A stretch of DNA of 64,000 nucleotides from an uncultured Christensenella sp. (GTDB lineage Bacteria; Bacillota; Clostridia; Christensenellales; UBA1242): the NCBI GenBank assembly GCA_949300385.1, contig CASGDZ010000001.1, forward strand, positions 16,276-80,275. The letters are read 5' to 3'. This document shows, one piece after another, positions 239 through 35,484 of the stretch. A program made the position numbers and the translations under genes. The notes below the pieces were generated by a model that saw only the letters and a list, made by a program, of their open reading frames with translations, had not been told where the DNA came from and made no database searches. The first letter of the stretch is position 1; every line of letters begins with the position of its first letter.

Positions 239-266
239 GCGGATGTGGCGAAATTGGCAGACGCGC
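239..266 (+). repeat. Partial copy of the first 28 nt of the downstream tRNA-Leu
   Basis: Positions 239-266 are identical to 426-453, the first 28 nt of tRNA-Leu(TAG): acceptor 5' strand, D arm and start of the anticodon arm. After 266 the two sequences diverge completely and no matching 3' half follows, so this is not a tRNA gene. The offset between the two 5' ends is 187 nt. A homologous arrangement exists on the minus strand at 35460-35484 with an offset of 188 nt. Confidence 0.93.
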
Positions 267-425
267 GCGTCATAATGCGCTTTTTAGTCAATTTGCTAAG
301 CGCAAATATAGACCTTTCGGCGATTATTCCTTTCCCCATTAGACTTTTGTCTAACGTGGACCCCGAAAGTCTAGCGCTAATATAGTCCATAGTATAATGA
401 CGATAAACTTATATACAACAAAAAT
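239..425 (+). ncRNA. tRNA-Leu-linked structured element, copy 1
   Basis: After the tRNA 5' copy (239-266) the segment shows ordered pairings. CGTCAT (268-273) pairs with ATGACG (397-402). A hairpin TGCGCTT/AAGCGCA lies at 276-304. A helix joins 309-320 to 363-373 with one bulged C and encloses hairpin TTAGAC/GTCTAA. The stretch 367-377 is an exact 11-nt reverse complement of 450-460, which covers the 5' strand of the tRNA-Leu anticodon stem and part of its loop. That stretch overlaps the 363-373 arm, so pairing inside the element and pairing with the tRNA exclude each other. The order and offsets match the minus-strand element at 35297-35484. Function is unknown; it could be a regulatory leader, a tRNA mimic or a small element inserted at tRNA-Leu genes. 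Confidence 0.6.
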
Positions 426-508
426 GCGGATGTGGCGAAATTGGCAGACGCGCTAGACTTAGGATCTAGTGGGTGACCGTGGGGGTTCAAGTCCCTTCAT
501 CCGCACCA
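426..508 (+). tRNA. tRNA-Leu (anticodon TAG)
   Basis: The acceptor GCGGATG pairs with CATCCGC, the anticodon stem CTAGA/TCTAG closes the loop CTTAGGA, and anticodon TAG reads CUN leucine codons. There is a class II variable arm, a T arm with GGGTTCAAGTCCC, and encoded CCA at 506-508. It is the last gene of a tRNA-Lys/element/tRNA-Leu unit that ends at the terminator just downstream. Confidence 0.97.
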
Positions 509-20539: not shown

Positions 20540-20887
20540 GTAGCAGTTTGGTCTATAAGCCGAGTTCTGTATTTGACGGTCATCTATCTAGTACATAGAT
20601 TGCTCTATGTATCAAGCGGTGTTTATGTCCTGGCGAGCAACCGTAACGGACATTTTACCTTGCTTCGGGTGGGGTTTACATGGACCAAGTTTGTCGCCAA
20701 ACTCGCGGTGAGCTCTTGCCTCGCCTTTTCATCCTTACTAACCACTCAGGGGTATAGCGGTTATTTTCTGTTGCACTTTCCTTCTAGTTGCCTAGACTTG
20801 CCGTTAGCAAGCACCCTGCTCTGTGAAGCTCGGACTTTCCTCAAACTGAGTTTGCACTCAACTTGCGACCATCTGACCAAGCTGACA
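20540..20887 (-). ncRNA. rnpB: RNase P catalytic RNA
   Basis: The minus strand carries the hallmark conserved blocks of bacterial RNase P RNA: GAGGAAAGTCCGAGCTTC near the 5' end, then CAGGGTGCT, a P4-region complement, and ACAGAACTCGGCTTATAG near the 3' end. P1 is formed by CAGCTTGGTC (20884-20875) with GACCAAACTG (20553-20544). A promoter (20893-20920) and a terminator (20477-20511) frame it. The ends are estimated to within a few nt. It matures tRNA 5' ends, which makes the duplicated tRNA-Leu 5' halves in this window of special interest. Confidence 0.95.
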
Positions 20888-35208: not shown

Positions 35209-35296
35209 TGGTGCCGGTGGTCGGGGTCGAACCGACACGTCCTTTTACGGACCCAGGATTTTAAGTCCTGTGCGTCTGCCATTTCGCCACACCGGC
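35209..35296 (-). tRNA. tRNA-Leu (anticodon TAA)
   Basis: Minus strand: acceptor GCCGGTG pairs with CACCGGC, anticodon stem CAGGA/TCCTG closes loop CTTAAAA, anticodon TAA. There is a long variable arm (GTCCGTAAAAGGAC) and encoded CCA. A partial copy of its 5' end lies 188 nt upstream. Confidence 0.97.
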
Positions 35297-35484
35297 AAAT
35301 TAAGATAGTTAAAATTTATACAATATAAGTCGTAGTGCTAAAGGCGCACAGGACGGGGACCCCGCAAATATTTATATTTGAAGGGGAAGAGGAGTAATCT
35401 TACTATAAATATTATTGCGAGTGTGGCGAGCAATATATAAAGATTGCTGATTACGACGAGCGTCTGCCATTTCGCCACACCGGC
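35297..35484 (-). ncRNA. tRNA-Leu-linked structured element, copy 2
   Basis: Read on the minus strand from 35484: 25 nt identical to the start of tRNA-Leu(TAA), then CGTCGTAAT, whose GTCGTA pairs with TACGAC near the 3' end. A hairpin AGCAAT/ATTGCT follows, then TCGCCACAC (antisense to 9 nt of the tRNA 5' half), CCCC with hairpin CAAATAT/ATATTTG and GGGG, then GTCCTGTGCG (35354-35345), an exact 10-nt antisense of the 5' side of the tRNA anticodon stem (35274-35265). Motif order and offsets parallel the plus-strand element at 239-425 although most bases differ and each copy matches its own tRNA. Function unknown. Confidence 0.6.
35460..35484 (-). repeat. Partial copy of the first 25 nt of tRNA-Leu(TAA)
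   Basis: Identical to 35272-35296 on the minus strand, then diverges. It begins 5 nt after the CCA end of tRNA-Cys. Confidence 0.93.

What the first reader, a model, noticed from the sequence alone, without database searches (positions are those of the whole stretch)
35209..35484. Second, independent tRNA-Leu-linked element with the same geometry but different sequence
On the minus strand the same layout precedes tRNA-Leu(TAA): 25 nt copy, CGTCRTAAT motif, hairpin, CCCC-hairpin-GG(G/A) motif, 10-nt antisense to the 5' anticodon stem, a helix-closing (T)RYGAC and ACTTATAT. The 5'-to-5' offset is 188 nt versus 187 nt. Each copy matches its own tRNA, which differs from the other. Two loci with matched geometry make chance very unlikely and define a family. 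This copy also has TCGCCACAC, antisense to 9 nt of the tRNA 5' half.
Basis: seen in the sequence. Interest (0 to 1): 0.9.

Follow-up and report, generated by a model that had tools for sequence, protein, structure and literature searches.

The report
Mobile repeat with target-matching antisense tail
A short non-coding repeat that appears to spread in the genomes of tiny gut bacteria duplicates part of the gene it lands in and carries a short antisense match to its own landing site; the tRNA-Leu element is one copy of it.

Summary
On the minus strand upstream of tRNA-Leu(TAA) lie a 25-nt copy of the tRNA 5' end (offset 188), a folded body and 10 nt antisense to that tRNA. All four tRNA-Leu genes found in the genome carry it; each tail matches its own tRNA over 10-12 nt and the other three over at most 8.

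The reading changes. The body is a dispersed repeat: 33 of 34 genomes of the genus, 21 of 151 sampled from the order, and other Clostridia. The same layout (target copy, body, antisense tail, target again) occurs at tRNA-Met, tRNA-Asn and 5S rRNA on the opposite strand, at tRNA-Arg and tRNA-Ser, and at the 3' ends of a pyruvate-phosphate-dikinase gene and an MBL-fold gene. At the best-matching tRNA-Leu locus of each relative it is present in 12 of 25 that can be judged. It is most likely a small non-coding mobile element, not a tRNA-processing device. Tail-target matches exceed chance downstream only.

Shown: architecture, patchy dispersal, matching. Inferred: that the tail guides insertion. 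No mobilising enzyme and no Rfam family was found.

The parts
35209..35296 (-). tRNA-Leu(TAA), intact target gene; target of the tail, CGCACAGGAC, at 35274-35265
35460..35484 (-). U': 25-nt direct copy of the tRNA-Leu(TAA) 5' end (left copy of the duplicated target)
35355..35459 (-). element body B, starts (T)CGTC; helix GTAATC 35454-35449 / GATTAC 35399-35394; CCCC 35386-35383 / GGGG 35363-35360
35345..35354 (-). guide-like tail GTCCTGTGCG, reverse complement of tRNA-Leu(TAA) nt 23-32, straddling the insertion junction
35297..35344 (-). AT-rich stretch between tail and tRNA; ACGAC 35333-35329 can pair with GTCGT 35457-35453
239..266 (+). second copy in the window: 28-nt direct copy of the tRNA-Leu(TAG) 5' end
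267..377 (+). second copy: body (CGTC at 268) with tail AAGTCTAGCGC at 367-377 matching tRNA nt 25-35 (450-460)
426..508 (+). tRNA-Leu(TAG), target of the second copy

Best explanation
The element is one copy of a family of short (core about 115 nt), non-coding mobile elements of Clostridia. It inserted between nucleotides 25 and 26 of tRNA-Leu(TAA). Insertion duplicated the left side of the target (at least the first 25 nt of the tRNA), so the tRNA gene to the right stayed whole. The layout is U' - body (CGTC + folded core) - tail - U X; the 9-16 nt tail is the reverse complement of the insertion junction and can pair with the intact target on the same strand about 70-80 nt downstream. Shown: dispersal, patchy presence, target duplication, a tail that matches its own target and differs where targets differ, a core fold with covarying pairs. 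Inferred: that the tail works as a guide, pairing with the target strand as RNA or single-stranded DNA so that an enzyme supplied in trans cuts within the paired stretch and inserts the element there, and that repeated use of the still-intact target makes the tandem arrays.
For: Dispersed: 7 copies in the own genome (E<=0.01); 1-39 copies in 33 of 34 genomes of the genus, own included; 21 of 151 genomes of the order, own included, at E<=0.001. Patchy at tRNA-Leu: 12 of 25; tRNA-Cys and tRNA-Leu lie 9 and 0 nt apart in L036 and L043 but 193 nt apart here. Same layout at other targets: 42 of 134 distinct copies pass a joint test of tail match >=9 nt and direct repeat >=6 nt; in 37 of the 42 the junction lies inside the match, in 30 of 42 the tail ends 72-83 nt before it. 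Tail match >=12 nt: 12 of 31 Leu and 13 of 97 other copies versus 0 of 310 and 1 of 970 shuffles; >=9 nt: 23 of 31 and 28 of 97 versus 3 of 310 and 30 of 970; upstream side at chance (>=9: 8 of 128 versus 10 of 384). Tail follows target: in G025 the CAA and TAA copies are 95.6% identical, and one of their 5 differences is the tail base at which the two tRNAs differ; in G005 the pair is 89.5% identical with the same tail difference. Core tree: target labels 11 changes, the lowest of 100 shuffles 24. Helix 1 covaries over 122 copies. Tandem copies in L041, L042, L117.
Against: 92 of 134 distinct copies fail the joint test. Some copies sit directly at tRNA ends (10 of 105 not upstream of a same-strand tRNA-Leu), and 9 of those 10 have no direct repeat of 10 nt or more. 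Direct-repeat length varies and the left copy often lacks the leader. Genome labels on the core tree need 33 changes, at the low edge of shuffles (lowest five of 100: 32-34), so a weak genome signal is also there. On the seed alignment two of five structure measures do not beat shuffles (pairs changed on both sides 7, reached by 40 of 500; pair types 12, reached by 498 of 500). No candidate enzyme: TnpB zinc ribbon 0 of 34 over cut-off, IS110 PF02371 0 of 34, RT 8 of 34 without correlation (p=0.64), IS200-like Y1 7 of 34; no recurring partner gene among neighbours. No transcript or cutting was observed.
Confidence: 0.5

Rival explanations
1. Mobile repeat whose antisense tail is a by-product of insertion, not a guide: the insertion enzyme or a polymerase copies a few nucleotides of the cut target strand onto the element end, while target choice comes from elsewhere (for example gene ends and hairpins).
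For: Tails match the local target even when cores are closely similar between two tRNA-Leu loci of one genome (G025, 95.6%), as de novo copying would give; 92 of 134 copies fail the joint tail and repeat test; 10 of 105 copies abut tRNA ends, which suggests site choice by tRNA gene structure.
Against: Cores group by target across species, yet pairing is kept where tRNAs differ: tRNA GCACGGGAC with tail GTCCCGTGC in L053, and in L078 the paired stretch has slid off the left side but is still 10 nt. A dead by-product should decay.
Confidence: 0.28
2. Cis-acting RNA that controls folding or 5' processing of the downstream tRNA-Leu: the tail sequesters the 5' half of the nascent tRNA.
For: All four tRNA-Leu genes found in the genome have it, pairing is matched to each isoacceptor, and the element lies between two tRNA genes of one strand, probably one transcript (inferred).
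Against: Same layout with the element antisense to tRNA-Met, tRNA-Asn, 5S rRNA and two protein genes; sense copy absent at 13 of 25 relatives' loci.
Confidence: 0.12
3. REP-like element mobilised by an IS200/RAYT-type HUH (Y1) transposase acting on folded single-stranded DNA.
For: CGTC 5' tag (62 of 65 copies, some of them of the same genus), as in CGTC-tagged REPs (PMC3733652); the 7 genomes with Y1_Tnp carry more copies (two-sided p=0.012, uncorrected).
Against: 27 of 34 genomes lack a Y1_Tnp match, four of them with more than 20 copies; no copy in any of the four Y1 loci scanned; target duplication is not expected from IS200-type insertion (recalled).
Confidence: 0.1

Closest known systems
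CGTC-tagged REPs (Di Nocera et al. 2013, PMC3733652; abstract and passages read)
   Same: Short non-coding dispersed repeat with an unpaired CGTC tag at one end and no dedicated transposase known
   Different: Those are 20-40 bp with a single 8-9 bp stem, 4-5 nt loop and usually a CCA tail; this one has a core of about 115 nt with several helices, duplicates its target and carries an antisense tail
IS110 bridge RNA systems (PMC11208160; seen in the search listing only)
   Same: Works like: a non-coding RNA that specifies the insertion site by complementarity
   Different: IS110 transposase domain PF02371 in 0 of 34 genomes; here a target duplication and a tail at the 3' end; an RNA has not been shown
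TnpB omega-RNA / IS605 (recalled)
   Same: Scaffold followed by a 3' guide-like stretch
   Different: No TnpB zinc ribbon above cut-off in 34 genomes; here the guide-like tail is part of the element and matches the downstream copy of the site
Integrative elements at tRNA genes with an identity block (recalled)
   Same: Insertion inside a tRNA gene with a duplicated tRNA part that keeps the gene whole
   Different: No room for an integrase gene; non-tRNA targets too; antisense tail

Membership tests
CGTC-tagged REP | CGTC (or TGTC, CCTC) tag at one end | tested here: met
   62 of 65 copies of the GTDB scan examined begin CGTC exactly (some are copies or genomes already in the main set); both window copies do
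CGTC-tagged REP | 20-40 bp, single 8-9 bp stem with 4-5 nt loop, mostly CCA tail | tested here: not met
   Core model of 115 positions with three helices named, 17 pairs; no CCA tail in the window copies
IS110 bridge RNA element | IS110 recombinase in the genome | tested here: not met
   PF02371: 0 of 34 genomes; 4 of 14 control genomes ring
TnpB omega-RNA element | TnpB nuclease in the genome | tested here: not met
   PF07282: 0 of 34 above cut-off, 3 weak matches below it
IS200/RAYT-mobilised REP | Y1 transposase gene flanked by the repeat | tested here: not met
   Y1_Tnp in 7 of 34 genomes; no copy in the four Y1 loci scanned; other Y1 matches were not fetched
Known Rfam RNA (4227 families) | covariance-model match | tested here: not met
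   No match to the element at gathering threshold or at permissive thresholds in the loci given
tRNA-targeted integrative element | encodes an integrase | tested here: not met
   The stretch between U' and the tRNA is 163 nt; no recurring partner gene in the neighbourhoods clustered
Guide-RNA system in general | transcribed RNA that pairs with target and directs cutting | not testable with these tools
   Needs RNA and biochemical data

The most novel reading that the evidence does not exclude
A new class of RNA-guided (or ssDNA-guided) mobile element: a non-coding element of about 150 nt whose own tail specifies the insertion site, which duplicates the site so that host gene and target both survive, and which is moved in trans by an enzyme not yet recognised in Clostridia.
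Probability: 0.35. Interest if true: 0.95.

Novelty: new variant of a known kind. Interest (0 to 1): 0.8.

Why it matters
Short non-coding mobile repeats are known, but I know of none that carries an antisense copy of its own insertion junction while duplicating the target so that a tRNA gene stays intact. If the tail guides insertion, this is a further kind of programmable insertion, in reduced-genome gut bacteria in which neither TnpB nor IS110 was found, and the open question of what moves CGTC-tagged repeats becomes testable. If the tail is only a by-product, it is still a readable footprint of an unknown insertion mechanism.

Tried and rejected
Rfam at permissive thresholds gave only tRNA, rRNA and sub-threshold matches. 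RNAalifold on the MAFFT alignment found no useful consensus (5 pairs, none changed on both sides), so the core structure was set by hand from single folds and column pairs and then counted; it leans on the alignment. TCGCCACAC and ACTTATAT were rejected as family features. A split or intron-like tRNA was considered and rejected: the CAG copy has lost the D-loop GG and three relatives carry an extra hairpin in the D-loop of the copy. Neighbour-gene clustering found no partner (the largest shared cluster, 8 loci, looks like an ABC transporter ATP-binding protein by its letters). RT does not correlate with copy number (p=0.64). Paper searches (listings only) showed no description of this element in the held library; led to PMC3733652. 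The Lachnospiraceae pair L225/L201 looks like a filled/empty site without target duplication or matching tail, against a uniform mechanism. Copies outside the main set show the tail match less often: >=10 nt in 7 of 61, versus 3 of 610 mononucleotide shuffles.

Rows dropped or selected: 135 of the 185 rows were analysed (weaker matches and second loci of one copy left out); 134 are distinct; 128 had flanks long enough for the shuffle test. In one search, 65 of the 87 matches were used, and these overlap the main set in part (for example L203, L208, L254). One search was given 71 of the 80 loci. Of the 42 rows, L146 and L159 look like AT-rich chance matches, and L172, L177, L116 have decayed or displaced repeats. 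In one search two rows (L042_1184, L119_445) were labelled LeuAG by my pattern although they lie upstream of tRNA-Leu(TAA); this adds changes and so weakens the target signal. The control mixes loci with the same target, so I rely.

Full report
Setting. The window is G000:C1:16276-80275 of an 838,645-base genome in 8 contigs, about 90% complete. A genome that the tool places in the same genus (G019) has a 235,858-base contig, the length of a contig of Candidatus Onthoplasma faecipullorum. PMC12306168 (passages seen) lists Onthoplasma MAGs under Christensenellales, family UBA1242, among genomes below 1 Mbp. The genus name is therefore an inference.

Observation. The element upstream of tRNA-Leu(TAA) is as described: copy 35484-35460, body, antisense 35354-35345, tRNA from 35296. 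A search for tRNAs in the own genome gave 31 matches, 30 of them fetched; ARAGORN names four tRNA-Leu genes there (TAG, TAA, CAA, CAG). All four have a 5'-end copy and a matched antisense tail; the CAG copy is degenerate in the D-loop. Longest tail matches in nt to the tRNAs TAA, CAA, TAG, CAG are: TAA tail 10, 6, 5, 5; CAA tail 8, 12, 5, 5; TAG tail 6, 5, 11, 8; CAG tail 4, 4, 8, 12.

It is a dispersed repeat. A covariance model R1 was built from 14 bodies. It finds 7 copies in G000 at E<=0.01: the four Leu copies, one by tRNA-Met, one beside a sequence resembling a T-box terminator (my reading), one beside the CAG copy. In the genus 33 of 34 genomes, own included, have 1 to 39 copies; in a sample of the order 21 of 151, own included. 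A pattern scan of GTDB genomes gave 83 stretches, mainly uncultured Clostridia, with Lachnospiraceae and Oscillospiraceae among them; R1 matches 64 of the 71 loci given to it.

Architecture away from tRNA-Leu. In 135 copies (134 distinct) I asked whether the tail region matches the downstream flank in reverse complement and whether the upstream flank is repeated downstream. 42 of 134 pass both. Targets include tRNA-Met read backwards (L068, L112, L114, L124, L174), tRNA-Arg (L113, L099), tRNA-Ser (L096), tRNA-Asn backwards (L104) (ARAGORN), 5S rRNA backwards (L136; Rfam), the 3' end of a pyruvate-phosphate-dikinase gene (L117) and of a gene with an MBL-fold domain (L175). In 37 of the 42 the junction lies inside the tail-target match, mostly with 2-8 nt left of it and 6-10 nt right; in 30 of 42 the tail ends 72-83 nt before the junction, in 4 of 42 39-46 nt, in 3 of 42 more than 100 nt. 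The right copy is the intact gene in the tRNA and 5S cases just named; exceptions are L071, a tRNA-Lys remnant in which ARAGORN finds no tRNA, and L063, where the tail matches a partial tRNA-Leu.

Chance. Matches of 12 nt or more: 12 of 31 Leu-linked and 13 of 97 other copies, against 0 of 310 and 1 of 970 dinucleotide shuffles; 9 nt or more: 23 of 31 and 28 of 97, against 3 of 310 and 30 of 970. On the upstream side 8 of 128 reach 9 nt against 10 of 384 shuffles, little or no signal. The asymmetry is an internal control. In the wider set the signal is weaker but present: 10 nt or more in 7 of 61 against 3 of 610.

Mobility. For 29 relatives I looked at the tRNA-Leu (TAA or CAA) locus that best matched the window's element and tRNA, a choice that favours presence. 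4 are cut by a contig start; of the other 25, 12 have a sense copy upstream and 13 do not; two of the 13 have an antisense copy, ending 3 nt (L056) and 26 nt (L061) from the tRNA. Some loci have tandem copies (L041, L042, L117); the two in L042 are identical. Several contigs begin exactly at such a tRNA-Leu (for example G007:C7, G031:C11, G012:C11, G001:C18), as repeats cause in assembly.

Tail and target differ together. On a tree of 48 cores with the last 12 nt removed, target labels need 11 changes, against 24 or more in 100 shuffles; genome labels need 33, against 32-34 for the five lowest of 100 shuffles, a weak signal at best. So cores group mainly by target across species. In G025 the CAA and TAA copies are 108/113 identical and one of the five differences is the tail base at which the two tRNAs differ; in G005 the pair is 102/114 identical with the same tail difference. 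In L053 the tRNA reads GCACGGGAC and the tail GTCCCGTGC. In L078 the paired stretch has slid to the right of the junction but is still 10 nt.

Structure and strand. One pair of helix 1 shows CG 42, AT 37, TA 31 over 122 copies. Over all pairs G-U cells number 93 and A-C cells 55, of which 24 come from one poorly aligned pair of columns; this favours the strand that bears the tail as the folded one. On the 14 seed bodies 79.9% of cells pair against 74.1% in shuffles (0 of 500 as high) and 32-47% when slid; the covariation score is 0.250 against 0.167 (0 of 500); but the number of pairs changed on both sides (7, reached by 40 of 500) and of pair types (12, reached by 498 of 500) is not above shuffles. 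The alignments lean towards the structure.

Second site class. Of 105 copies not lying upstream of a same-strand tRNA-Leu, 27 have a tRNA within 200 nt and 10 start within 3 nt of a tRNA end, either after CCA or, antisense, at the 5' end; 9 of these 10 have no direct repeat of 10 nt or more. In the partly overlapping set, 11 of 65 start within 4 nt of a tRNA end. Any mechanism must explain both classes.

Enzyme. RT 8 of 34, TnpB zinc ribbon 0 of 34 over cut-off, IS110 PF02371 0 of 34, Y1 7 of 34. Of RT and Y1, only Y1 goes with copy number (p=0.012 uncorrected; RT p=0.64), and no copy lies in the four Y1 or eight RT loci scanned. The mobilising enzyme is unknown.

Verdict. Most likely a mobile non-coding element with a guide-like tail. 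That the tail guides insertion is inference; a templated by-product is the chief rival, and a tRNA-processing role is unlikely as the general explanation.

Noticed in passing
G000:C2:13390 region (L031), tRNA-Leu(CAG) copy: The upstream copy has the GGC of the D-loop changed to TTT (CGGCAG to CTTTAG) while the D-stem is kept; the G028 TAA copy (L045) shows the same GGC to TTT change.
   Followed up: partly
L045, L047, L054: An extra AT-rich hairpin of about 40 nt sits inside the D-loop of the upstream tRNA copy.
   Followed up: no
L036 2805-2929, L037 1710-1828, L040 1319-1414, L044 1132-1253, L048 97-218, L056 992-1103 and 1387-1498: Antisense copies end 1-3 nt before the 5' end of tRNA-Gly, tRNA-Cys or tRNA-Leu; similar placement is seen in Lachnospiraceae records (L225, L277, L239).
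   Followed up: partly
G000:C1:6174-6785 (L187): A reverse transcriptase gene lies about 1.5 kb from a weak copy of the element (L071, G000:C1:8300-8412) that carries the tail layout at a tRNA-Lys remnant.
   Followed up: partly
L069, L102: Copies lie directly beside what look like T-box leader terminators (GGTGGTAYCACG, my reading).
   Followed up: no
L063, L128: A partial tRNA-Leu lies between the element and the intact tRNA-Leu; in L063 the tail matches the partial tRNA.
   Followed up: no
window 20540-20884 (-): RNase P RNA class A gene, ordinary (Rfam).
   Followed up: no
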